From positions 7,504,501 through 7,568,500 of the forward strand of contig AP031353.1 in the NCBI GenBank assembly GCA_037833965.1: a stretch of 64,000 bases of DNA. Reading direction: 5' to 3'. This DNA comes from Marchantia polymorpha subsp. ruderalis. Taxonomy: Eukaryota; Streptophyta; Marchantiopsida; Marchantiales; Marchantiaceae. A program made the position numbers and the translations under genes. Every line of letters starts with the position of its first letter. Position 1 is the first letter of the stretch. Below the pieces are notes generated by a model. It worked only from the letters and a program-made list of their open reading frames with translations, was not told the DNA's origin and made no database searches. Positions 1 through 47,090 of the stretch are shown here, piece after piece.

Positions 1-1550
1 CCCCTTACGATAACCACCCCTAACACCAATCGATTTGTCAAGAAATGTTCAATCACACGCCTGGAAACGAATCGCTGAGCTCAACCTGATCCAATTCTAA
101 AACTTCTCCGGAATCTAAATCCGCCCGACTCTCTCCTCGAAGTCCTCCAATTTGAGCTGCTAGCTGCTGGTCTTCTATACATGAATCCGAACTATCGACC
201 TTAATCCAGCGAGGTCACGAATTTGGGCCCTCCGGAGTGGGAACTACAGTCTATGCAGAACCTGCGAGAAAGAGGGAAAAGCAAGGCAGAAACAGGAATG
301 ATAATTTCTGGATTAATCCTGTAAGAGGTCGATGTGTCTAGAAAGATCTCGCCCCTACATTAAGAGGAGTCTAACTTTAGACCTCGCTACACTTGTCCTT
401 CGATCCGCCCCTGCCTCTAGCTCTACTAAACTACGGCTCATCGTAGTTCTCTGCTTTTCGATTGTGTCTACAACTACTGCAGTTAGAGGAGATCATCGCA
501 GTTATTCCTATTAGTGGAGTGACTCCTCGTACTCAAAGCGCAAACATGAAACACATTATATGCGAACAATATTGCCTCCTTGATGGCTCCCCATCGCTAT
601 CCCATGAATCTTCACTTTCAGCTTATTACTCCAATTATTTACTCTAGTTCTTGTTCTGGTTATGGATCATAGGCGTGACCATTTGTGAGTGATTAAGAAT
701 CAAGACTTATTGATGTGTACTGTAAGATGGAAATATTATACACTCATAACAATGTGCGATGACATGGGTATTGACATCTTCAACAAATCATATAATATCT
801 TTCCATCAACCTTCCATCATAACATTAACCTTTTTTAATCATCTATATATAACATCAATGAACAAGAGAGTAATCTTATACTTCTTTATAAGTTTCTGGC
901 ATGCGTAGAAAATGCAATTTGAATATTTTACATTTAATAGATGTAATATAATTTCCAGTGTGATGTTACAGAGGAATTACGGTGTCAAAGGAAGTGGTTT
1001 TGGAGCTATAAAATTTCAGTTTTTTGTCACGGAGACTAACAACCACTAACACATAGTGGGAGAGATCTCTCCAATCCTACTTCAGATAGCCAAAGTGACT
1101 CTAAAGGTTTAGAGATGATTATTTCATCAATGAATCACATGTGATTTCACCATCCAATATGTCATTCTCACCTATTGAAGAATATCAATGGAAGAACTGA
1201 TAAATCCATAAATATTTGATAATGTTCAACAAAGAAGCATGTGGCAAAAGATATCATACGGATATGTCTGTGTGAATCAGAATCCTGCATTGAGCTTCAA
1301 AACTTTACCCATACCCATGAATGTATCAACTGTATCCATCCATCTAATATTGGAGGCACAAAGATTTCTCTTGAGACATGCCCATTGTGCCTTTTAAGCT
1401 CTAAAGGCATGCCTCATGTACTTGGACATGCATGTATGAATATACGAAAAATTATACATACATGCATTCTTCAAGTTGTTCTACACAAATAAAAACTTAA
1501 ATTTATATAAAATCATTTCTTTACATTTTCAAGAAAATAAATTGTCAACA
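1..1550. other. Unassigned AT-rich sequence
   Basis: I see no recognisable gene. Short open frames (for example 332-514 and 1241-1492) have no familiar motifs, domain order or codon pattern and look like chance frames. This stretch lies beyond the 3' side of the hAT transposase relic that begins near 1553, so part of it could be that transposon's outer flank. I could not identify terminal inverted repeats. Confidence 0.4.
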
Positions 1551-1552
1551 TT

Positions 1553-3606
1553 TCAATCTTCCCCATCTACCACTTCTATCCAAATCTTCATTGTTGTTTC
1601 GTTTAGATGTGGAGATGACGCTTGTCTAAATCTAACAAAATCAAAATACATGTCAAAATCTTGATGACAATCATCATCATCATCACAAGTAAAATCTAGA
1701 TTTTTCAAACTCAATTCATCGATTGTTATTATATTGAGATCTTCATCTTCTTCAAGTGCTAAATTAAATGAAATTTCTTGCTCTTGTGCTAACAATGAAG
1801 AAGATGTTGAAATCGATTTTGAATGTAAGTTAAGATTTAATCTAACAATGATAAACATCTTCATGCGTTCAACTAACATGCGATTGCAAATTTTTGTATT
1901 TGATAATGAGAGCTGTGAAAGCAATCTTTCCACTGCCGCATTATGAGAAGCAATATAAAATATTTTCATTGCAAAAATTTTCACGCGAAGCATTTGCATC
2001 AACGAGTGTTGCCAAAAATTCATTACACAATCTTTGTTTTGACTGTTTGTGAAAACATTACTTCGATTGATGTACTCGTTCAAATCCGCCAGAAATGATA
2101 TTGTATCCGTCTTGATGAATCTCCATCCTTTTGCAAGATTTGCAATATCTTTTCGAATGTTGTTGTATGTCTTCTTTCTGGAGATGGCAACAGATAGATA
2201 TAGAGTATTCAAAAGAGAGCTACAAAATAGACTTGATATTTAAATTCAAAAGATTTTTATCAAATAATCTTGATCGTGTGATCTTCAAAATAGCTGCAGT
2301 TCTTGATAACGTCAATATCTTTTACAATTGTGTATAATTTGATGAGTTTTGCAAAAATCTGATATAATGTGGTTGAATTCTCCTCAAGACAAGCTATACT
2401 ATCAACTATGAGCTTAATAAGTTTACAAATTTCCTCGTTAATTGCAAAATGATAATCATACTCCACCAACTTGAAAATATCTTTGTTGATGTGAGTCTCA
2501 TTACTAGCTTTGATTTTTTGATACAATGTTGAAATCCTTTGAAAGTATGCAACATCAAGACATACAAGTACGGCTGAATACCATAGTGTTTTGCAAAACC
2601 TCGACAGAAACTTACAAATATTGTTCTCTCCACCCCATGTTTTGAGATATATAGTATAATAATGAAAACTTGTAAAAAAAATTAATCAACCTGCAGTTTC
2701 TTTTGAATAACTGCTTCATGATATCATGAGATGACACATCTTTTGTGATAAGATTCAATTGATGAAGAGCACATCGCAAGTGAACAATTCTTGGATTTGA
2801 GCTTGCCAAGTTGTTTCTTAATCTTATCATAGTAGTTGGACTATCAAACATAAAACAACAATTGATATCAATGAAAGAAGTCTTTTTGTTGGTTGACATT
2901 ATTAGTTGTTGCTGCAATGCATTCGCTGTTGAACCCCAAACCCTTGATCTTAGACATTGTGCATTTCACAAAACTCACAATGTCTAAGATCCATTGTTTT
3001 ACACTTGTGATGGTCATCACAATATAAATCAAACTTTTTGACACATCTTCCCACCCATAGTTATTGTCACATCGTTGGAATATTTCAACTCTGCCCCAAC
3101 TCCAGTAGGCACTGGTTGTAATATTTTTGTAACAATCTATCTGAGACCATCTTTCTAGAAGGAAGAGTGTAGTTGGGATTGATTCCCCGAATGAACATTC
3201 CCAGCTCTTTATTGCAACATTCATTGAAAGCACTGTTGGAAGTCATCAGAAAGTCTACAAACCTCAAATGATGGTTCTCTTGTATATGTACATTCATCGA
3301 AAGACTAAAGTATTTAGGCAATTGTTGTTGGTAATGTGAGGAAGAAATAATTTGCTATGACTCAAAACCTAATTGAGATCTAATTGAAATATGTGCCAAA
3401 ATATGTCTTCCTTTAAAAAGTCGTTCTACAATGCGAATATATTCAACTCTACTTACAGAAGCCAGAGTACAACGATGTAGTATATGAAACTCCAATTTAT
3501 CAGGTTTACCATCAAGCACATGTCCACAATATACACACTTTGCACGATACCCATTTCCACTAATCTTCTCATAAGAACAATAAAAACAGTGACATCTCAG
3601 ATTCAT
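1553..3606 (-). pseudogene. hAT-family transposase relic (BED finger, DUF659-like core, hATC tail)
   Basis: A cut-and-paste DNA transposase, now broken into at least six minus-strand frames. Read from right to left: a BED-type zinc finger at 3355-3606 (C-x2-C followed by an H-x3-HRC cluster); the hAT segment 'NPNYTLPSRKMVSDRLL' near 3120-3200; the core segment with 'CALHQLNLI' near 2745-2770; and the C-terminal dimerisation helix 'AAVERLLSQLSLSNTKICNR' near 1860-1940. The last matches the hATC signature in which an A-A-x-E-R core is followed by N-R-L-x-x-E-R. Frames change repeatedly between 2212 and 3355, and the frame at 1553-2212 carries an acidic D-rich tail. The normal length would be about 650-750 aa in one ORF, so this copy cannot make transposase. 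Family assignment is firm; exact ends are not resolved and no TIR or 8-bp duplication was found. Confidence 0.82.
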
Positions 3607-3747
3607 AACCTCATCAGATTTTTTCTATCCACGTGGTATTTCCATTCTCTGTATTCAGGTTGATTAAGAATCCATAACTACGTTGTCAATTTTTGCTTCG
3701 AGAATATCAGGTTGATTAAGTGGAAATGAATTTATCGACATCTTAGA

Positions 3748-4155
3748 ACCTGCACACATTAGATCATCAAGGTATTAAACACTCAATAATAAAATCTGTC
3801 ACGCACTAAAGTACACAACTTGAACATGCACACATTAAAGAATAACAGTGTCACTCATGCACTAAAGCATACATCCAAAATATGAAACACTAAATAGAAG
3901 TCACTCACTCATTAAAGCACACAACCTAAACATGTACACATTAGATAATCAAAATATAAAACACATAATAGGGATCACTCACTCATTGAAACACACAACT
4001 TGAACATGCACACATTAGATAATCAAAATATTAAACACATAATAAGAGTCACTCACTTATTGAAGCACACAACCTGAACATGCACACATTAGATAATCAA
4101 AATATAAAACACAGAATAGGAATCAGTCACGCGCTAAAGCGAACAACATGAACAC
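3748..4155. repeat. 74-bp tandem repeat array
   Basis: Five to six diverged copies of a unit that reads approximately CACAACCTGAACATGCACAC followed by ATTAGATAATCAAAATAT and a TCACTCACTCATTAAAG segment. The anchor CACAAC(C/T) occurs at 3920, 3994 and 4068, giving an exact 74-bp period; the copies before 3900 are shortened. The array lies between the 5' side of the minus-strand hAT transposase and the gypsy insertion at 4241. It may be a subterminal repeat of the hAT element, because many hAT ends carry such repeats, or an independent minisatellite. Confidence 0.75.
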
Positions 4156-4235
4156 AAGAGCTTGATTATATTACAAGGGATATTTCACCACACAGTGTTG
4201 AGTGCAAGCTTTTCAATGAATTGATATGAATCCGG

Positions 4236-4240
4236 CATTT
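4236..4240. repeat. Target-site duplication CATTT (left, gypsy)
   Basis: CATTT directly abuts the outer edge of the left LTR and is repeated at 11095-11099 beyond the right LTR. It proves that 4241-11094 is one insertion with both original ends preserved. Confidence 0.9.
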
Positions 4241-4653
4241 TATAACACTAGGGTTTAAAGAGAAGCTCACTCGAAGATAGAATCGTAAACTCCGAAGATG
4301 AGAGATACCAACAATGGTTCTCCTCTCCCTTATATAGCTCTCACCAACAAGTATAAGGATATAAGATCTAATCCCCACCATCCATCCCACTACTAGTGGA
4401 TGGATGACTTGGCGGATAACCCTAACAAGCACACGGATCGCTGACGTGGCGCACCCAACTAACACACTCAATCCTTACCTACAAGCACACGGATTGCTGA
4501 CGTGGCACTGTCAACTAACACATCCACTTTGTACTACCACTATCAAGTGCGCGGATCGTTGACGTGGCAGCTATGACTAGTGCACACTAAAGTATCTACA
4601 TCAATATTTAGAGTAACCTCTACTTTAGTTCTAACTAACTAAAGATGGTTACA
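4241..4653 (-). repeat. 3' LTR of gypsy element
   Basis: 413 bp, nearly identical to 10682-11094. In element orientation it starts TGTAACC. It carries three GCCACGTCA motifs (plus-strand TGACGTGGC at about 4442, 4498 and 4560) and a TATATAAGG box (plus-strand ending near 4336). It is preceded on the internal side by the polypurine tract. Confidence 0.92.
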
Positions 4654-4669
4654 AAACTCCCTCCTTTTA
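4654..4669 (-). other. Polypurine tract of gypsy element
   Basis: The minus strand reads AAAAGGAGGGAGTTT immediately before the 3' LTR, which is the expected position and composition for the plus-strand DNA primer of an LTR retrotransposon. Confidence 0.8.
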
Positions 4670-5356
4670 AGATGCAACGTCCTCGTTGCACATACATTCA
4701 AACTCCTGAACTATCAAAGGTGCATTTGCTAAATTTTTAGCTGATTCCCAAGTTGATTCATACGATGGATAGCCTTTCCATTGAAACAAATACTCTACTT
4801 TGGGATATTTATGACCTCGAATACGTTTCTTGAGTATCTTTTCTACTTCAAACTCCTCATAATCTGCTATCAAGGTTGGAAGAGGAGGTGGTGCTGGTTG
4901 GTTGGTGAATTGTTTTGGTCGTGGTACATGTTTTTGCAATCGTGACACATGAAATACTAGATGTATTTTCATATGTGACGGAAGTTCCAACTTGTATGAC
5001 ATTTCACCAACACGCTTCAAAACAAAAAATGGACCAATGAAACTAGGGTTCAACTTTGGTGTTCCTACAAGAGACAAATTTGTTGTAGATAACCAAACAT
5101 GATCTCCAACCTCAAAAACCACTTCTGTACAATGAGCATCGGCATGCTGCTTTTGCCGATTTTGAGCTATCACCAACTTTTCCTTGGCCTGATGTAGTAC
5201 TCGGTGAATATACTCCACAAATTCATTGACTGCTGCAACTTTGGTCGAAAACTCCTCTACTTTGGGAAGTCTCATCAAACTTGAAGGAGTTATAGGATGA
5301 GCTCCATACATAACTAAAAATGGATACACTTTTGTGGATGCATTAACAGAATGCAA
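4667..5356 (-). mobile_element. Gypsy integrase C-terminus plus chromodomain
   Basis: Open frame of 229 residues. The first part is the C-terminal integrase region, with the GPF-type module ('IGPFFVLKRVGEMSYKLELP') and the 'LVFHVSRLQKHVP' segment typical of plant gypsy integrases. The last 55 residues form a chromodomain: an acidic start ('YEEFEVEKIL'), the aromatic-rich 'YLFQWKGYPSYESTWE' strand, and a terminal helix. The chromodomain places the element in the chromovirus clade of Ty3/gypsy. Confidence 0.9.
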
Positions 5357-5988
5357 TTATTATATGCAAATTCCACAAGTGTCAAAAGGTTGTCCCACTC
5401 TTCTTGCTCTTCTAATGTGAATGCTCGTAGCATATCCTCTATGGTTCTATTTGCCCTCTCAGTTTGTCCATCAGTTTGAGGGTGATAGGCCGTTGACATT
5501 GCTAGTTTTGTTTTGAAAAAATTAAACAAAGTTTTCCAAAATAAACTAGTGAAGTGAGTAACTCTATCCGTGATTAACACTAAGCTTAAGCCATGATTCA
5601 CAAAAACTACATCTAGATACAATTGAGCTAGTTGTGAAGCTGTTACTGTTTTTGTGGTTGACATAATGTGAATCATCTTGCTCAATTTGTACTCAAAAAC
5701 CACCACTAAATCATGTACTAACGAAGTCCTTGGTAACTCACATACAAGATCCATGGTGACATGTTCCCACCGTTGTTCGGGAATAGGAAGAGGTTGTAAT
5801 AAACCCGCTGGTTTTTGATCACTTGCCTTGTTTTGTTGACAAGCAACACAACATCGAACATAAGACTCCACATCCTCACGTATTTTGGGCCAATAGTACA
5901 CTCGTTGTATACTCTCCACGGTTTTCTCCACTCCCACATGACCTGCAATGGCTTTATCATGACTTTCAGCCAAAATCATTGTGCGCAA
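5314..5988 (-). mobile_element. Gypsy integrase zinc finger and catalytic core
   Basis: Integrase inserts the cDNA into the genome. The HHCC finger is visible (H-x-G-x-x-KT...YYWP...C-x-x-C-QQNK) near 5830-5940, followed by the catalytic core with 'MDLVCELP', 'LITDRVTHFTSLFW' and 'YHPQTDGQTERANR'. Its far end overlaps the chromodomain-bearing segment. Part of the fossil gypsy at 4241-11094. Confidence 0.9.
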
Positions 5989-5989
5989 A

Positions 5990-6460
5990 TTGTGGTCTTG
6001 TGGAATCCATATACACTAATTGTAAAACGCCAAACCTCAAGATTTCTCGGCCTTTCCAGTTTGTAGTGCCCGAGTGATCTCTTCATACTCCTTTGTGGCT
6101 TGTGACATCTTGCTCCACCAATCCGCTTGAATTTTCATTTCTGCAACATGATTCAAACAAGACATGAGTGTGAGAGCATCTGCAAGTTGCTTCTTTCCCT
6201 CCACTTACACAATCTTCATGTTGAAGCGTTGACGCCACTCTGCCCATTGAATTTGTCGTTTGGACAGATCCTTCTAAGTTTCCAAATAAACCAATGATTT
6301 ATGATCAGTCTTCACCACAAACTCCTTATTACCCAAGTAATGCTTCCAATGTTTGGTTGCGAACATGATGGCTAACTCCTCACGTTCTGTCGTGTGATAA
6401 TTTTGTTCCGCCGCCACCAACTTTCGAGAATAGAAAGCAACTGAATGCCATCCATCCTTT
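5990..6460 (-). mobile_element. Gypsy RNase H and connection region, degraded
   Basis: This interval lies between the RT and integrase segments, where the RNase H of Ty3/gypsy pol is expected. Short matches on the minus strand (for instance around 6290-6420, the region of the acidic active-site motif and 'TEREELAIM'-type sequence) support this. It is not one clean reading frame in this copy. Confidence 0.65.
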
Positions 6461-7338
6461 CATTCTTGTTGAAGTATGCCACCTACTGTTGTACCTGATG
6501 CGTCAGTGGCCAACTTGATAGAACGGTTAGGATCATACCACTTGAGAATAGGTGTGTGTAACAAAGCATCTTTCAATGCTTGAAAAGCTAACTCTTGAGT
6601 TGTTTTCCATCTCCAATTTTGACATTTCCTTAACATGGAAGTCAAGGCCTGAGCTTGGCGAGCAAAACCTTTCACAAATCTACGATAGAATCCAGTGAGC
6701 CCTAGAAAACTCTTCAATTGAGTTTGATCCGTAGGTGCTATCCATTTTTGAATGGCATCTATCTTCTCATTCATCACTTGGATTCGTGTAGCAGTAACTC
6801 TATGACCCAAGTAATCTACTTCTAACTTGCCAAATTCACATTTTGAAGCTTTGGTATACAATTGATTGTTTCTTAAAACTTGAAGTACCTCTCGTAAATG
6901 ACTTCTATGATCACTCAAAGTTTTGTTATACACCAATATATCATCTAGAAAAACAATGACAGATTTATCTAGATAAGGGCGAAAGATATCGTTCATCAAT
7001 CCCATGAATGCAGCTGGTGCATTAGTGTGACCAAAAGGCATCACTAGATACTCAAAGTTTCCATACCTAGTACGAAAAGCTGTCTTGTGAACATCTTCAT
7101 ATGCAATTTGAAATTGATTGTAGCCGCTTATCAAATCTAGCTTGGTGAAGTACTTCGCTCCTTGAAGTTGATCAAACAAATCATCCATACGAGGTAATGG
7201 ATATTTGTTTTTCACCGTTTGCTGATTCAACCCGCGATAATCGATACATAGTTTCATGGATCCATCATTCTTCTTCACGAAGAGTACTGGAGCTCCATAA
7301 GGTGAAACACTTGGTTGAATGAATCCTTTTCTCAACAT
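6460..7338 (-). mobile_element. Gypsy reverse transcriptase
   Basis: 292-residue open frame containing the full fingers-palm order of Ty3/gypsy RT: '[16 protein letters not shown]', '[20 protein letters not shown]', '[10 protein letters not shown]', 'FEYLVMPFG', the catalytic 'FLDDILVY' at about residues 130-137, then 'LGHRV' and '[11 protein letters not shown]'. It copies the element RNA into DNA. This is the best-preserved part of the element. Confidence 0.93.
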
Positions 7339-8100
7339 CTACTCCACTTGAGCTTTGCATTCTTCCAATTTGTTTGGAGCCAAACAATATGGAGCTTTGC
7401 AAGTTGGTGTACTTCCAGGTATCACCTCGATCTTGTGATCTACTCGCCTCTTTGATGGTAATCCTGCAGGTAGATCATCTGGAAAAACATCTTTATACTC
7501 CATAAAAATGTCGTTCAGGTACTGCGGGATGTAAGGTTTGTCCGTGGACCCAATATCTCTTATAAGTCCAAGGAAACATACATCATCTCTAGAATTGGAT
7601 GCTGTACCCATCACAAAGAGGGATAAATTACTATTCTGAAATCTAATTCTATTTCCATAGATCTTACATCCATTAATTGTAATCACTTTTCTTCTCCAAC
7701 CTACCTTCGGATTATATTGCTCCATCCATGACATTCCAAGGATGACATCATATCGAGCTAAACGAATTATTTTCCATTCAATGCTCTCCTTGTATCTACC
7801 TATGGATAATTCTACACTCAATGGTAGTGTTTCTACCACTTCAATTTGCCCGTTTGGCAATTCAACTTTTTCACTCACGTTCTTCATCAACATCAAACCT
7901 AACTTCATAGCAACACTCCTTGATAGATAATTCTTAGTTGCTCCAGGATCAATTAAAACTCTCACCTTGTGTCCTTCCATGAAACCATCAGTGACAATGA
8001 GTTGAGCTTGCTTCTTACTCCTTCCATGAGCTCCCAACCATTGCCTTCTTCCAACCTCGCCTTTTCTTCGCTTTGTAGAACCAATAAGGCCGCGAGGCAA
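7339..8100 (-). mobile_element. Gypsy aspartic protease and linker to RT
   Basis: The retropepsin-like segment includes the active-site strand 'VLIDPGATKNYLS' near 7917-7956, with hydrophobic residues around the D-x-G-A-T core, followed by 'DVILGMSWM', which is characteristic of plant gypsy proteases. The end of the frame runs toward the RT fingers. It would cleave the Gag-Pol polyprotein. Confidence 0.87.
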
Positions 8101-8105
8101 GATTA

Positions 8106-8330
8106 CTAGTGATCTTCGTTTCTCGAAATTGCTTCCTCCATCTCTTCATACTCTATCCCCTCCATATCGTTGAACGGTCGTCGCTGCATGAGCCGTCCTC
8201 CTTGTTGTGTCGGCCGAACTCGACAAAACTTGGCTATGTGATCCATTCGTCCACATGCATAGCATTGACGATTGTCACGAACTCCAGCTCCTCCTCGAAC
8301 CATTCCGTTATTTGCATAACCTTCTTGCAA
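8106..8330 (-). mobile_element. Gypsy gag nucleocapsid zinc knuckle
   Basis: A CCHC knuckle, 'CYACGRMDHIAKFC', lies at about 8220-8264. It binds RNA in the Gag particle. The sequence is arginine- and glycine-rich around it, as in plant gypsy nucleocapsids. Confidence 0.85.
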
Positions 8331-24543: not shown

Positions 24544-26733
24544 ATGGCGTCGTCGAGATCGTTGAGAATCCATTGGGAGCGATGGTTCATATTCGTGATG
24601 CTGTGCTTCTTCGTAGGAATGCTCTACTGGGTGTCTCCCGTCAGAGAACTGCGTCAGTTGAGATGGAGAGTTGTTGGGTTGCATTACGACCAATCTATGG
24701 TTCCGTATAACGATTTTCCGCTCCTTCGTCCGGTACGTTCCTGTCCTTGCCTGCATCACAGTGGTGGCAGTGTGCTAAAAAATGAATGGTCGTCCTATTC
24801 CGCAGTGGAATGCTTTTTTCTCTGGCACTCAGAGCTTACTCAGGCTTCTTCGCATGAGCAGAATCATTTGCTTCGGGGCCTTCCAGGGCTTCATGACTGC
24901 AGCTTTTGCTCGAGCGATGAGGTGATTAGATAATTAAGTGGTTCGTAAGCAAATTTTATGTTAGTCCCGGAGATTGTTTAGCGATTCTAAGCTGAGACAT
25001 TTTGTGGGCGGTGCAGTCGGACAAGAAGAGAGTGGCAATCTGTTTGGTCGGGGGCGCGAGGGCGTTCGAGTTGACCGGCCCGAGTATCAAGCAGTACCTG
25101 TTGGACCCTTACGAGGATGCGGACGTGTTCGTGCATTCACCAGTCGACAAGGACGTGCATAAATTGACCTTGCTCGATGGCTTTCCTCATCTCGCAGCTA
25201 TACGGCTTTTCCACCCGAAGAGGATCAACGAGACCAAGATTGCCAGGGAGGTTCTGACTGCTCGAGGATCCCCCAATGGAATTCAGGTACAGATTCTTCG
25301 CCCTGTCTCCGTAGTCTGAATTTTCTCGTCTTATCAGGCCGGATGACAGGTCGGGGGTGCTCAGTCGTTCTGATCCTAAATTGCCTCTGTACTCCCGAGT
25401 TTGGCTTCGAAACGATGTGTCGGTGACATATTTCTTACAACAGTGGGACGTTCTACGCCCAAATTGCTCCGGGCTTTGTGGTAATGAATAGCTCTACCTT
25501 GCAGAGTAGTTGTACTCTGAAGCGTAATCCGCGGCATGATGACGCTGGCGCGTCATTCTCGTGCACCATGTCACACATATGCGTAGTCTTCACACTTCCG
25601 CGTGGCCATTTCGGTTTGCAAGAGCGAATCGAAGGATTTCGGTAGCTTTCTCATGATTCCACGAAACATATCCAATCGCGTCATTTTTTTTGATACGATT
25701 CGGACGTGCGGGTTTGCCCAGGCATTCATTCCTTGTTTGTCATGTTTTAGCTGGATTGCTAATACCCGAAAGCTTGGCCATGCTTTCGAGCATGATATCA
25801 TTGATCCAAGTTTTGAACTGAGCTGATACAGAAGACAGTTTGCCAGGGCTGCATTCGGTCGATGAGATGGCAAGTTCTACATAAGCTGTGGTCGCGCAGG
25901 TTGTTAGAAATTCACCCAACTCATGCTGATGAATGTTTGCAATTTTTCAACAGGGTCTCCTTCAGTACTTCCAGTTGGTGGAAGGTTGTCTCGACATGAT
26001 TCAGGCATACGAGCGTCTTCACGGATTCATGTACGCCTGGGTCATCAGGACGAGGGTGGATGGTTACTGGAACGCGGCCATGCCTCAGGTGGAATCCCTC
26101 GACAAGTCCTACTACTACGTGCCTCACGGATCCGGATACGGTGGCCTGAATGACAGATTGGGCGTGGGCACTCGCGAATTGAGTGCAATTGCGTTATCGA
26201 GGATGTCCCTGCTCCCGAAAATTCACGCTCTTGGCTACAGAGGGCTGTACTCGGAAACGGCCTTTCAGGCCCAGTTCACGTCCAGCAATGTGGAGGTGAA
26301 ATTCAGCACGTTCCCGTTCTGTGTCCTGAGCACTCGCAAGTACCCCTGGCCTCCGAAGGTTTACGGCGTGCCCGTCCTGTCCATAGGGAGCAAAGGGCCT
26401 CTAAATGGCGCCAAGTGCAGACCCTGCACGCCTTTGGCCGTCGGTCGACATGCCAGGGCCATTGTCAACGCCAGTAACAGATCTGTGGCTTGGGTCGGTC
26501 CCACGGAGGACCCCCAACTCTGCGACGCCAGAGACGATTGGGAAGGTCGGTGGGAAGGGATATTCGATGATATTTCAGGGCCCGACGCAGCTGACGCTCG
26601 GAAAAAAATCAGTTCCAGGACCTTCGACCAGTGTGTACAGGATGTAGAAGATTTTCAGCAGCAGTGGGAGGTGTGGGATGCCCCGTCGGCCGAAATTCTC
26701 TGTAGAGACATCGGCAAAGAGTCGAAAAGTTAA
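24544..26733 (+). CDS. Plant type II membrane protein, DUF7796 type (glycosyltransferase-like), three exons
   Basis: Exons 24544-24732, 25017-25286 and 25954-26733 join in phase 0 at GT-AG introns into 412 codons. Residues 1-12 are basic and cytosolic; residues 13-31 ('[20 protein letters not shown]') form a signal anchor, suggesting a Golgi or ER lumenal protein. The lumenal part has '[20 protein letters not shown]' at about 67-87, 'DVFVHSPVD' after it, and '[10 protein letters not shown]' at 183-192, a possible acidic metal or nucleotide-sugar site. A cysteine-containing C-terminal half follows ('[19 protein letters not shown]', '[10 protein letters not shown]'). I recognise the family as a plant domain of unknown function (DUF7796); a glycosyltransferase role is inferred from topology and motifs, not shown. 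The ATG at 24544 is the first in frame. Intact: no stops or odd splice sites. Confidence 0.88.
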
Positions 26734-32328: not shown

Positions 32329-33085
32329 GACCGTCATCATCTCTCGCGATTGACCGTCTCCATGCCTACAACTATTGCCCGCGACTAGCCGTCACAATCG
32401 CCCGCAACAGTTGATTGCAACTTACTATCATCGTCAAATGCATGTTAATCTCGGTTGCTTTGCCTATCGTGGTTGCTCAATCGACCGCGGTTGCAACACA
32501 TACCTTGATTCTTTAGAACAACTATGATTGCACTTCTGCGCTTGCATTGTCTACCGCAATTCGCACAACCGATTATGATTACCCGCCTTCCACAATTACC
32601 CATCCAACTGTGGTTGCGCCATCACTGCTGTTGCCTACTGCAACCACGTTTAATATGAGGAATCACCATGCGATCTTACGTCTTGCGATCGACGGTCTCT
32701 CCGGTTTGATAATGCTTGGCCGCCTTGCCATTCGGGGACTGGCCACTTGATACTATTCCAGACACCGTCCGGTTTTGACGTTTGAGGGTTTGGCTCTCGG
32801 CCGCTTTGGTCTTCGCTCTTCCGTGTCACTTGGCCGCTCTGGTTGATCCTGCTGCGACCGCCGGCTGCCGCTTTCACTTAGCTGGAACTCTCTCCACATG
32901 CAGTGCGATAATTCCAGCTATTACCTCCGTTTCACAGGAAAGAGAGAGTGTCTACGGCTCTCTTTCTTCAAGAACTCTTAGCATTCAATTTATTGCTTCT
33001 GTAAATTGTGGAACTAGAACCTATCCACTATTTTCATAGCCCAATTGGACTTCAAGTAAATTTTAAATCTTTGCGATTTGCAAAG
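32329..33085. repeat. Degenerate GC-rich minisatellite (right part) and copia leader
   Basis: Continues the CCGCAACT/GGTTGC-type irregular repeats to about 32640, then GGCCGCTTTG and CCGCTCTGG words to about 32880. Sequence from 32900 to 33085 lacks features and abuts the CAAAG duplication of the 33086-35400 unit. Confidence 0.55.
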
Positions 33086-33219
33086 TGTAATAACCCACCA
33101 AAGGCTAAAACTGCAGTATGGTGGTAAAAAGATCGAACCCACAGGGACAGAGGCAACACACAGAGTAAAAAGTGTCACGTTTAACAGACTTTTGTAGAGT
33201 TTGAATTCTCAGGCGACTG

Positions 33220-34086
33220 TCACTCCCATTTCCGCTTTCGCGGAGCGCGCTCACTTCGACGTTCTTCTGCTGCTCTTGCTGGAGGCGGAGCCGGAGTTGG
33301 ACTGGCAGGTGCCTCGTCCGGATCCGTGTCTACTTTGGCCACCCGCAAGTATCTACCTGGATAACTCCGGGTCAGCAGCGGAAACCGTGTCCGCTCTGAA
33401 TTTGTCAAACATCCCATCGCCCGATAAAACACAATCAGGTAAGGCGAAAGATGATTGAGGGTTCCTCCTCTCTCTTCTTGCGCATGTTGGCGCGTCACCT
33501 TCCACAGGAGCCGTGCCCAATGAACTGGAGCTCCTGACAACACTAGCTCCACAAATCCTACTTGCCAACCATGCATGTAAGCGGTCTTGGTCGGCTGCAA
33601 TATCTGCAGCAATGCAGTCGCGACATTTCTCCTCAATCGATCTTTGTAATCCCGTGTCCGGAAACCGTTCTTGGGATGCATGGCAACTTTGAAAAGATCA
33701 TTGTAGGAGATTTCTTCCTCCTTGGACACCTTCACGCTATCGGCCTCGAAGAGGAGAAACCCTTCCTCGCCGGCACACCTGCCCAACACCTGCGCCCAGT
33801 CACAAATGTCCCACCTCTCTGGATGTGGGCGGAATCCGCGCGAGGACTTGTGTCTCTCCTGCAGATACTCGCGCACCATCTCCGGACATGTCCAGTTCCA
33901 TCCCCACAAGAGGAAATCGAGCTTCAGCCTTGTTAGCACATCTTGGAATGCGCGCAGACCAATCTGCGGCACTTTAAGTGGAGACACTCGCAGCTGGGGG
34001 ACCTTCGACATTGCGTTCCCTGCACACACAGACGTTCTCCCTTCCGCTCGCTCTCTCACAATCGCCGCTGCGCGTCGGCCGCTCAA
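33220..34086 (-). CDS. TE-borne protein of unknown function, intact ORF
   Basis: 288 codons from the first Met, or 263 from the inner Met at 34011 (start 'MSKVPQLRVSPLK'), which I prefer because the first 25 residues look like leader sequence. Order: a hydrophobic and aromatic N-terminal region ('LDFLLWGWNWTCPEMVREYL'), a charged middle ('RHKSSRGFRPHPERWDICDW'), a helical core ('RRNVATALLQILQPTKTAYM' and 'HWARLLWKVTRQHAQEERGG'), 'HLSPYLIVFYRAMGCLT', and a disordered Pro/Arg tail ending in the NLS-like 'APRKRKW'. No catalytic motif is evident. I recall many similar hypothetical proteins in liverwort gene sets, which fits a repeated, element-carried gene; this is unverified. No break seen. Function unknown; it might bind DNA or RNA given its basic tail. 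Confidence 0.7.
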   Translation of the reverse strand: MSGRRAAAIVRERAEGRTSVCAGNAMSKVPQLRVSPLKVPQIGLRAFQDVLTRLKLDFLLWGWNWTCPEMVREYLQERHKSSRGFRPHPERWDICDWAQVLGRCAGEEGFLLFEADSVKVSKEEEISYNDLFKVAMHPKNGFRTRDYKDRLRRNVATALLQILQPTKTAYMHGWQVGFVELVLSGAPVHWARLLWKVTRQHAQEERGGTLNHLSPYLIVFYRAMGCLTNSERTRFPLLTRSYPGRYLRVAKVDTDPDEAPASPTPAPPPARAAEERRSERAPRKRKWE

Positions 34087-34519
34087 ACACTGAATGCAAT
34101 CGCTCTCTCTTCTCTTGCGCGCTCAAGTTCGCTACTCGCAAATTCTCTGCAAGGTCTGTCAAGATCCTTGCGCAACTCGTCTCCGCACTCTCTCCTCTCA
34201 CTGCAGGTCTCTCCGCCCATGCGCGTAATCTTGGAAGCTGGAAATCGCAAAATCAAGAATGAGAGAATGAGACTGGAGAGCAGTCTTTTCTTCTCCGAAT
34301 TCAAGATCGTCCAACGTTCTTACTGGTTACAATTACGCAGCCGGCTATACGGCCTAACGGTTCGCCCTCGCATGCTCGAATTCACGTCTCCGCACTGCGC
34401 GCATTCGCATGCGTGAATGTTGAATTCTCCCGCCGCCATCGTCTTCCGAACTCGAGTTTCGGCGCCGTCTTCCGGACTCGAGTTCGCCGCAGTGTATGCG
34501 TCGACTATGTTGTCTTTTC

Positions 34520-35250
34520 CTAACCTGACCATCGCCGGAGGCGTATCGCCGCTGGCGTATTCCTTCTCCGTCGGTGCCTTGCTGGAGGCGCACATCAAGT
34601 CGGCGCGAATTACGCCGGCGCGTATTCGTACCACTTGTTTTGTCCGTTCTGCCCCGTCTATTGCTGACGGCGCATATCCCGCCGGCGCAAATCATGCCAG
34701 CGCATCCGCCTATCCGCGCCACGTCGGAGGCGTACATCCGGCCGGCGCTTCTCTTCCGTTGCGCAGCCGCCAAAGGCGCTTCCGCCTCTGAGTTGATTTC
34801 CTCCCATGAGCGCGTGGTTCCGCCGAAGGCGCATCGCCGAAGGCGTACGGGAGTCCTTTCCGACGGTGAACCCTAGCGCGAACGGCGCATGTCCGGATAC
34901 GAGTTTTCCAATGCTCATAACTTCTTCGTCCTTGATCCATATCCGGCGCTATTGGGCTCGTCAGAACAAGCGTCCCGAGCTCTTTCCAATGCAACCTCAA
35001 CTAACTGGAATTACCGTGTATCCTGATCGTTATGAAGGTTTTCCTCCCGCGCTAGCGGCGCATCGCCGAAGGCGCACTCATGGTCGGAAGCCTTCAGAGG
35101 TCCTTGCCAGCTTCTGACGTCTTTAGCGAGATTTCCTCCGGAGGTGTCTGCGCCGGAAGCGTACCTTCCCTAAACGCTGGAAGCGCGTGAGTAGAGACAT
35201 CTCAGCAAAGGAGATCTTGCCGAAGGCGCCAAAGACATTTGGCGCTGGTA
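34520..35250. repeat. Field of GCCGNNGGCG(C/T)A interrupted palindromes
   Basis: About 15-20 occurrences of a 10-12 bp word such as GCCGAAGGCGCA, GCCGGAGGCGTA and GCCGCTGGCGTA, often in back-to-back pairs (near 34529, 34827 and 35067). They are dispersed, not in a fixed tandem period, and confined to the region upstream of the ORF in the 2.3-kb unit. They could be binding sites for the encoded protein or cis signals of the element. Confidence 0.7.
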
Positions 35251-35405
35251 CGTCCAACTTCGCGCTTCTTCGTTACCTCGTGACGATCTCCTCAATCCAC
35301 TCTATTTAACGTACCATTTCATAACCACAGACACTGCTTCGGTACTTGTTTTCTAAAATTGTTTAAATTCTGCAAAAAAAACAAAAAGTGTGTTACCACA
35401 CAAAG

Positions 35406-46111: not shown

Positions 46112-47090
46112 TTATTGTGACAAATTGTTAGTGATATAATGATCAAACTTCCCCACAACAACATCCGTGATTGGAGATTTTTCCTTGTCAGAACTAGGAG
46201 CCTTACAGTTCTCCCCCTCTTTCAATAAGCCAAGCTCATTGAAAGAAACATCCCTACTGACAATCAGCTTACAGGCTAATGGATCACATAGCCTGTAACC
46301 TTTCACGCCACTAGCATATTCAAGAAAATGACATCTCTTGGACGTATGATGTAACTTAGTCCTTTGCTTCTTTAATGTGAGAGTATAAGCAATAGAACCA
46401 AATACTCTCAAGCAAGTATAATCCGCCATCCGTTTATGCTTGAGATCCAACGGTGTGGATAAACTAATTGCACTAGAAGAAAAAAGATGTACCAAATAAA
46501 TTGCGGTGTTGACGGCTTCGGCCCAAAGTTCTCTTAGTATATCGGATTTGCCTAGCATACTTCGCACCTTCTCCAACACTGTTCTGTTGAGTCTCTCAGA
46601 AACAGCGTTTTGTTGTGGAGTGTAAACTGTTGTGAAATGGTGAGTCATCCCCTCCTCTGTACAATGCCTCTGAAACTCCTCAAAAGTATATTCGCCGCCA
46701 TTATTTGATCATAAATATTTTACCCTTTGTCCAGCGTGAGTTTCAACTTGTATGCACCAAGTTTTGAAGGTGGAAAACATCTCAGACTTGTGGGTAGAAA
46801 ATATATCCACACATACCTGAAGTTATCATCTATAAAAAATACATAGTAGAGATTTTGTGAGAATGATGCAATAAGAGATTACCCCCACACATCACTATGT
46901 ATATACTTCAGTATCTCCGTGGAACTATGAGTTCAAACACTAAAAGCTCGCCTATGCTATTTACCCATGATGCAATGTTCACAAAATTTCAAGTCAACTT
47001 TACCCAAAGCCGGTAACATCTTCTTATCAAGAAGAGACACATACCTATCACTCATATGACCTAGGCAAGAATGTCATACATGAGACATAT
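46112..47090 (-). mobile_element. Copia integrase
   Basis: The 46112-46648 frame holds the C-terminal core ('YTPQQNAVSERLNRTVLEKV', 'LWAEAVNTAIYL', 'LRVFGSIAY') and the 'CHFLEYASGVKGYRL' segment. The N-terminal core lies at about 46650-47090 and is degraded. Confidence 0.88.

What the first reader, a model, noticed from the sequence alone, without database searches (positions are those of the whole stretch)
33081..35405. A 2.3-kb retroviral-type insertion unit carrying only one antisense ORF
Seen: TG...CA ends, imperfect terminal inverted repeats (TGTAATAACCCAC against TGTGGTAACACAC), and CAAAG duplicated at 33081-33085 and 35401-35405. Inside are one intact 263-288 aa ORF and a palindrome-rich region, but no gag, pol or LTR pair. 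Such ends and a 5-bp duplication imply integrase-mediated insertion. A solo LTR that encodes a conserved protein, or a small non-autonomous element with its own gene, would be unusual. The protein resembles a family I recall as abundant in liverwort predictions (unverified), so the unit may be the vehicle that spreads it.
Basis: partly seen in the sequence, partly recalled or inferred. Interest (0 to 1): 0.88.

Follow-up and report, generated by a model that had tools for sequence, protein, structure and literature searches.

The report
Retrotransposon LTR that carries a gene
In what is likely a Marchantia liverwort, this 2.3-kb unit is a shortened solo LTR (end repeat) of a Gypsy retrotransposon whose 4.9-kb LTRs can each hold a whole, selectively conserved 851-codon gene of no known family, predicted to make a helper protein for the element.

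Summary
In detail: 33086-35400 has TG...CA ends and an exact 5-bp duplication (CAAAG). It is a solo LTR that has lost about 2.6 kb at a 5-bp microhomology; that junction occurs once in the genome. Intact LTRs are about 4.9 kb. Of 20 relatives checked, 15 showed the far end, and 14 of those are solo LTRs with exact 5-bp duplications. A complete element (15,539 bp) has two identical 4,870-bp LTRs around gag and pol. The ORF is antisense only to the window's + strand: it runs in the gag-pol sense, lies wholly inside the LTR, and has 851 codons when whole; the window keeps 263. It behaves as a gene: N-terminal dN/dS between subfamilies is 0.09-0.11 in six copies, against 1.7-2.4 in shifted frames. 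A relative 42-43% identical also sits inside a 5.3-kb LTR. Of 90 profile hits, 81 are named, all Marchantia polymorpha 'hypothetical proteins'; no significant Pfam or fold match was found. By position the nearest precedent is sag of MMTV (recalled); in the passages I read, plant accessory ORFs lie in the internal region. Expression and function are untested; I infer a nuclear accessory factor.

The parts
33081..33085 (.). Target-site duplication CAAAG, left copy
   Evidence: Read; 14 of 15 relatives with a readable far end have an exact 5-bp duplication at the same ends
33086..35400 (-). Solo LTR with a private internal deletion of about 2.6 kb (sense of the element is the minus strand)
   Evidence: Aligns to positions 1-142 and 2727-4870 of the 4,870-bp LTR of C1:377831-393369; junction found once in the genome
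33086..33228 (-). 3' end of the LTR in the sense of the element
   Evidence: 97.9% identical to LTR 1-142 of the complete element
33224..33228 (.). Deletion junction: 5-bp microhomology TCCCA
   Evidence: Present at both breakpoints in intact LTRs
33220..34011 (-). Truncated LTR ORF, 263 aa plus stop: N-terminal part of an 851-codon gene
   Evidence: 89% identical to residues 1-268 of the complete ORF; dN/dS of the domain about 0.12 over 29 copies
34012..35400 (-). LTR leader upstream of the ORF
   Evidence: Differs by 0.12-0.14 per site from the LTR of L032 in the seven copies compared
34533..35230 (+). Array of six CGCCGAAGGCGCA-like motifs, possibly binding sites (inferred)
   Evidence: 6 of 6 matches in the whole window lie here, 0.30 expected; 4 of the 6 matches in L032 lie in its leader
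35302..35309 (-). TATA-like box TTAAATAG, a possible start for the ORF transcript (inferred)
   Evidence: CTAAATAG at the matching position (92) of the LTR of L032
35401..35405 (.). Target-site duplication CAAAG, right copy
   Evidence: Read

Best explanation
The unit is a solo LTR, shortened by one private 2.6-kb deletion, of a Gypsy LTR retrotransposon whose intact LTRs contain an entire selectively conserved gene in the gag-pol sense, predicted to encode a nuclear accessory protein that acts for the element. Shown: the LTR structure, the target duplications, the gene inside the LTR, coding selection on it, and the same layout in a relative whose LTR protein is 42-43% identical. Inferred: a full element inserted by its integrase; LTR-LTR recombination removed gag-pol and left one LTR; a microhomology deletion then removed the middle and C-terminal parts of the gene. 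Inferred: a TATA-like box 33 nt after the ORF stop would start the gag-pol RNA downstream of the ORF, which would place the ORF in U3. It would then be read from an upstream promoter in an LTR, or as the last ORF before the 3' end of the RNA, as with sag of MMTV (recalled). Weakest inferred step: basic clusters, a coiled-coil-like C-terminus and a conserved motif array in the leader suggest a nuclear DNA- or chromatin-binding factor (transactivator or anti-silencing).
For: Complete element with two identical LTRs, TSD CGTCC, and gag and pol on the same strand as the LTR ORF. 118 of 144 scored ORF hits lie in 59 same-strand pairs 8.9-11.1 kb apart, 55 of the pairs at 10.5-10.7 kb. 14 of 15 readable relatives are solo LTRs with exact duplications. 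dN/dS 0.116 over 29 copies and 0.091-0.113 in six copies, against 1.66-2.42 in shifted frames. The relative in L057 lies in a 3' LTR right after pol, with TSD AAAAC and its empty site present in L056. Unique deletion junction with microhomology.
Against: No transcript, protein or localisation data. 7 of the 29 copies have a stop in the N-terminal domain, and the L055 and L057 ORFs are broken, so many copies are dead. No Pfam, PDB or fold match supports any function, and the structure models are poor (pLDDT 53 and 58). The promoter boxes are by eye. Two of the six motif matches in L032 lie outside the leader. The copy L002 has no matching duplication. The far end was not seen in 5 of 20 copies checked.
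Confidence: 0.7

Rival explanations
1. Same element, but the LTR protein is a structural or envelope-like product that works in particles or transport, not a nuclear regulator.
For: Read from the 3' LTR it would be the last ORF after pol in the sense orientation, the place of plant env-like ORFs (PMC7264820, passages seen). Long coiled-coil-like region.
Against: gag with zinc knuckles is present separately. By eye I saw no signal peptide or membrane span, but ran no predictor. The basic clusters point to the nucleus or to nucleic acid.
Confidence: 0.25
2. The ORF is a captured host gene or an accidental long frame in GC-rich LTR sequence, without function for the element.
For: The middle part is low-complexity with weaker constraint (dN/dS 0.32-0.40). 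No known domain.
Against: N-terminal dN/dS 0.09-0.11, with shifted frames at 1.66-2.42. 134 of the 144 best-scoring frames have at least 862 codons. A relative 42-43% identical also lies in an LTR. The named homologues found are Marchantia polymorpha proteins only, with no wider host family.
Confidence: 0.05
3. A 2.3-kb non-autonomous element that moves as such and spreads the 263-aa ORF.
For: Clean ends and target duplication.
Against: The junction occurs once in the genome; 34 of 34 other near-full-length matches continue into LTR sequence missing here.
Confidence: 0.02

Closest known systems
Ty3/Gypsy LTR retrotransposons and their solo LTRs
   Same: TG...CA LTRs, 5-bp target duplication, polypurine tract, gag, RT-RNase H-integrase order, solo LTRs.
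   Different: The LTR is 4.9 kb and contains an entire 851-codon gene.
Plant LTR retrotransposons with additional ORFs (aORF or eORF: Grande, RIRE2, Retand, Ogre, Athila, SIRE)
   Same: A third, lineage-specific ORF of unknown function besides gag-pol (PMC7264820 and PMC6317226, passages seen).
   Different: In the passages seen those ORFs are upstream or downstream of gag-pol in the internal region; here the ORF is inside the LTR, hence present twice per element and once per solo LTR.
sag of mouse mammary tumour virus (recalled, no call)
   Same: A protein-coding ORF within an LTR, in the sense of gag-pol.
   Different: No sequence relation seen (no such Pfam match); different host and presumably different role; whether this ORF lies in U3 is inferred.
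Athila/Tat (OTA) clade of plant Gypsy elements
   Same: No chromodomain match in pol; large element with an extra ORF; a stretch after the 5' LTR that resembles primer-binding regions I recall from that group.
   Different: No second RNase H listed by Pfam; the PBS-like stretch starts 22 nt after the LTR; no tree was built, so membership is open.

Membership tests
LTR retrotransposon, Ty3/Gypsy type | Two direct LTRs with TG...CA ends and a target-site duplication | tested here: met
   C1:377831-393369: two 4,870-bp LTRs with 0 differences, CGTCC on both sides
LTR retrotransposon, Ty3/Gypsy type | gag plus pol in the order protease, RT, RNase H, integrase | tested here: met
   RT, RNase H, integrase and zinc knuckles above Pfam cut-offs; the protease match is just below its cut-off, and 732 of 945 aa of gag were scanned
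LTR retrotransposon, Ty3/Gypsy type | Polypurine tract and tRNA primer-binding site | tested here: inconclusive
   GAGGAGGGGGGCA adjoins the 3' LTR; a TGGCGCCGCTGCCGGGGA stretch begins 22 nt after the 5' LTR and was not compared with tRNAs
Solo LTR | Both LTR ends within one target duplication, no internal region | tested here: met
   Window unit; the LTR is internally deleted
Plant additional ORF (aORF/eORF) of the internal region | ORF lies between the LTRs | tested here: not met
   The ORF lies at sense positions 1357-3909 of the 4,870-bp LTR
OTA (Athila/Tat) clade | Place in an RT-integrase tree; additional RNase H for Tat | tested here: inconclusive
   No tree built; no second RNase H listed by Pfam
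LTR-encoded accessory gene of the MMTV sag type (works like) | ORF in U3, expressed | not testable with these tools
   The U3/R border needs RNA start sites; a TATAAA at sense LTR 3946 follows the ORF
Small non-autonomous element | Several copies with the same short structure | tested here: not met
   Junction pattern found once in the genome

The most novel reading that the evidence does not exclude
The LTR is a stand-alone gene cassette: the accessory gene sits in the LTR so that it survives LTR-LTR recombination, and the solo LTRs are not all fossils but a genome-wide stock of helper genes that keep the family active in trans, for example by countering silencing at the motif array in the leader.
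Probability: 0.15. Interest if true: 0.85.

Novelty: new variant of a known kind. Interest (0 to 1): 0.62.

Why it matters
LTRs are generally treated as non-coding and solo LTRs as dead remnants. Here about half of the LTR is a gene that selection has kept while its relatives diverged to 42-43% identity; it is carried twice by a full element and can persist in a solo LTR. That makes it testable whether solo LTRs can support their family in trans. It would also mean that at least 81 annotated 'hypothetical proteins' of Marchantia polymorpha are relatives of a retrotransposon LTR gene, and probably not host genes.

Tried and rejected
Small non-autonomous mobile unit: rejected by the unique junction. 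Antisense accessory ORF as in Retand or Grande: rejected, since gag-pol is on the same strand. TIR DNA transposon: rejected, since the ends are those of paired LTRs around gag-pol. Marchantia polymorpha as the host: not supported; a window protein (25933-26733) is 91% identical to Marchantia paleacea, 69% to two Riccia species and 57% to the best M. polymorpha hit listed (120 of 526 hits listed), so I call the host only a likely Marchantia. My note named M. polymorpha and is superseded. Two AlphaFold models (pLDDT 53 and 58) were poor; the better one gave no fold match at E <= 0.001, which says little. The PDB sequence search gave two weak coiled-coil hits. Genome searches with the divergent relatives P0011 and P0004 did not complete; L055-L057 served instead.

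Literature: four searches asked for ORFs inside LTRs (one search found 0 papers), one for additional ORFs, three for Marchantia elements. In the listings I saw no paper on a gene inside plant LTRs, but phrase searching of open-access text cannot exclude one. Read by passages only: PMC7264820, PMC6317226, PMC9985172, PMC10714607, PMC8775202; in PMC11963269 none of the terms I looked for occurred.

Full report
Observation. The unit at 33086-35400 starts TGTAATAACCCAC and ends GTGTTACCACA, between two CAAAG copies. One long minus-strand ORF (33220-34122 stop to stop; 263 aa from the ATG) and a region of repeated, palindrome-like motifs are there.

What it is. A search of the host genome (241.5 Mb, 9 contigs) with the unit gave 49 matches (3,680 candidates, 40 scored). 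Only the window's own copy matched from 1 to 2315. The 34 other near-full-length matches begin at unit position 132-139, and 31 of them reach the right end at 2315 (two stop at 2313, one at 2202). To the left of position 139 the 29 that I hold run on, and most share a common sequence that the window lacks. The left-end 33-mer and the right-end 39-mer occur 6,389 and 1,200 times (up to 3 mismatches; reversed controls 0). On C1 they recur as a left-right pair spanning 4,870 bp, twice, with starts 10,669 bp apart. Reading C1:377831-393369 shows a complete element of 15,539 bp: two 4,870-bp LTRs with 0 differences, CGTCC on both sides, and 5,799 bp between them with gag (945 aa) and pol (946 aa) frames on the minus strand. 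Pfam finds zinc knuckles, reverse transcriptase, RNase H and integrase above cut-off, and an aspartyl protease just below it (732 of 945 aa of gag scanned). A polypurine tract adjoins the LTR start in the sense direction. The window's unit aligns to LTR 1-142 and 2727-4870 of this copy at 98% and 86%.

The window copy is a private deletion. Its breakpoints share TCCCA, and the junction pattern occurs once in the genome with up to 3 mismatches. I fetched the expected far end of 20 of the 29 other loci. It was visible in 15, and 14 of these have an exact 5-bp duplication at both LTR ends, so they are solo LTRs. The fifteenth (L026) adjoins the PBS side of an internal region. In 5 (L003, L008, L012, L013, L024) the end was not in the 800 bases fetched. 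L002, looked at separately, has a left end but no matching duplication.

The gene. In the complete LTR the ORF spans sense positions 1357-3909 (851 codons from the ATG; the frame is open for 951), wholly within the LTR and in the sense of gag-pol. Residues 236-560 are rich in R, A, T, P and S, and 561-780 look like coiled coil by eye. The window keeps the N-terminal part (89% identical over residues 1-268). A protein search of the genome scored 144 of 8,143 candidates, the best ones. 144 of 144 have no stop in the 265-residue query region, and 134 of 144 have frames of at least 862 codons. 118 of the 144 lie in 59 same-strand pairs 8.9-11.1 kb apart, 55 of the pairs at 10.5-10.7 kb, as both LTRs of full elements would.

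Selection. I compared 29 copies of the window's subfamily, the window included, with L032 (of 34 rows, two hits in L019, the duplicate L034 and the identical L033 were dropped). Mean dN/dS over 265 codons is 0.116 (0.090-0.140); among the 29 copies the ratio is 0.286. A fixed-versus-variable contrast points the same way (fixed 42 synonymous to 21 nonsynonymous; variable 102 to 125; P = 0.003), but the copies are related, so that P is not to be leaned on. In a second test of 10 copies, six had frames of at least 300 codons: N-terminal ratios 0.091-0.113, shifted-frame controls 1.66-2.42, third codon positions with 53-57 of 75-82 differences. The middle part gives 0.32-0.40 (six copies, two of them partial), and the C-terminal part 0.25-0.34 (four copies). 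Three copies had shorter frames and one gave no start by the motif used. Against the reading: 7 of the 29 copies have a stop in the N-terminal domain.

Depth of the layout. In L057 an internally deleted element has TSD AAAAC, and its empty target is present in L056. Its 3' LTR of about 5.3 kb follows pol and a polypurine tract directly, and carries a relative of the ORF that is 42-43% identical and broken into frames of 813 and 147 codons. Its pol fragment is 86-90% identical to that of L032, so the LTR gene and pol have different histories or rates. L055 holds another solo LTR (4,902 bp, TSD CACAC) with a broken ORF.

Homologues. A search with residues 1-260 gave 14 proteins, all Marchantia polymorpha 'hypothetical proteins'. 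A profile search gave 90, of which 81 are named Marchantia polymorpha and 9 come from unnamed contigs (only the 7,996 candidates sharing most words were scored). No Pfam family matches the ORF significantly; among 45 members scanned the matches are weak and scattered. PDB sequence and fold searches gave nothing significant, the latter on a model of low confidence. The host is probably a Marchantia other than M. polymorpha: a conserved window protein is 91% identical to M. paleacea.

How it may work. Shown: anatomy, insertion, deletion, selection. Inferred: a TATAAA 33 nt after the ORF stop, kept in the L002/L031 copy, would start the gag-pol RNA downstream of the ORF and put the ORF in U3; a second TATA-like box at position 92 could serve the ORF itself. 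The leader, with its motif array, differs less between subfamilies (0.12-0.14 per site in seven copies) than synonymous sites do (dS about 0.42), which suggests that it too is constrained or exchanged. Basic clusters (RKRKW, PKQ-AR) and the coiled-coil-like part suggest a nuclear, self-associating factor; this is a reading of composition, not a test.

Known and new. Extra ORFs in plant LTR retrotransposons are well described, but in the passages I read they lie in the internal region. A gene within an LTR is known for MMTV (recalled). Four literature searches for ORFs inside LTRs listed no paper on such a gene in plant LTRs, which is weak evidence of absence. I file it as a new variant of a known kind.

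Noticed in passing
window 4667-8145 (-): Fragments of another Gypsy element with protease, RT, integrase zinc finger and a chromodomain; its pol is about 30% identical to that of the LTR-gene element.
   Followed up: partly
window 46112-46708 (-): Retroviral polymerase SH3-like domain and a piece of integrase, probably a Copia-type remnant.
   Followed up: no
window 25933-26733 (+): Conserved plant gene (DUF7796), 91% identical to Marchantia paleacea but 57% to the best listed M. polymorpha hit; useful for placing the host.
   Followed up: partly
L057:1838-9508: pol 86-90% identical to the C1 element but LTR protein only 42-43% identical: possible exchange of LTR gene and gag-pol between families.
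   Followed up: partly
G000, whole genome: The left-end motif (3' LTR end in sense) is about five times as frequent as the right-end motif (6,389 against 1,200, up to 3 mismatches), so further families may share that end.
   Followed up: no
G000:C1, about 2.2-3.2 Mb: The same series of left-end hits recurs at offsets of about 393 kb and 366 kb: large tandem duplications or an assembly artefact.
   Followed up: no
window 34012-35400; leader in L032: The non-coding leader of the LTR is less diverged between subfamilies than synonymous sites of the ORF.
   Followed up: partly
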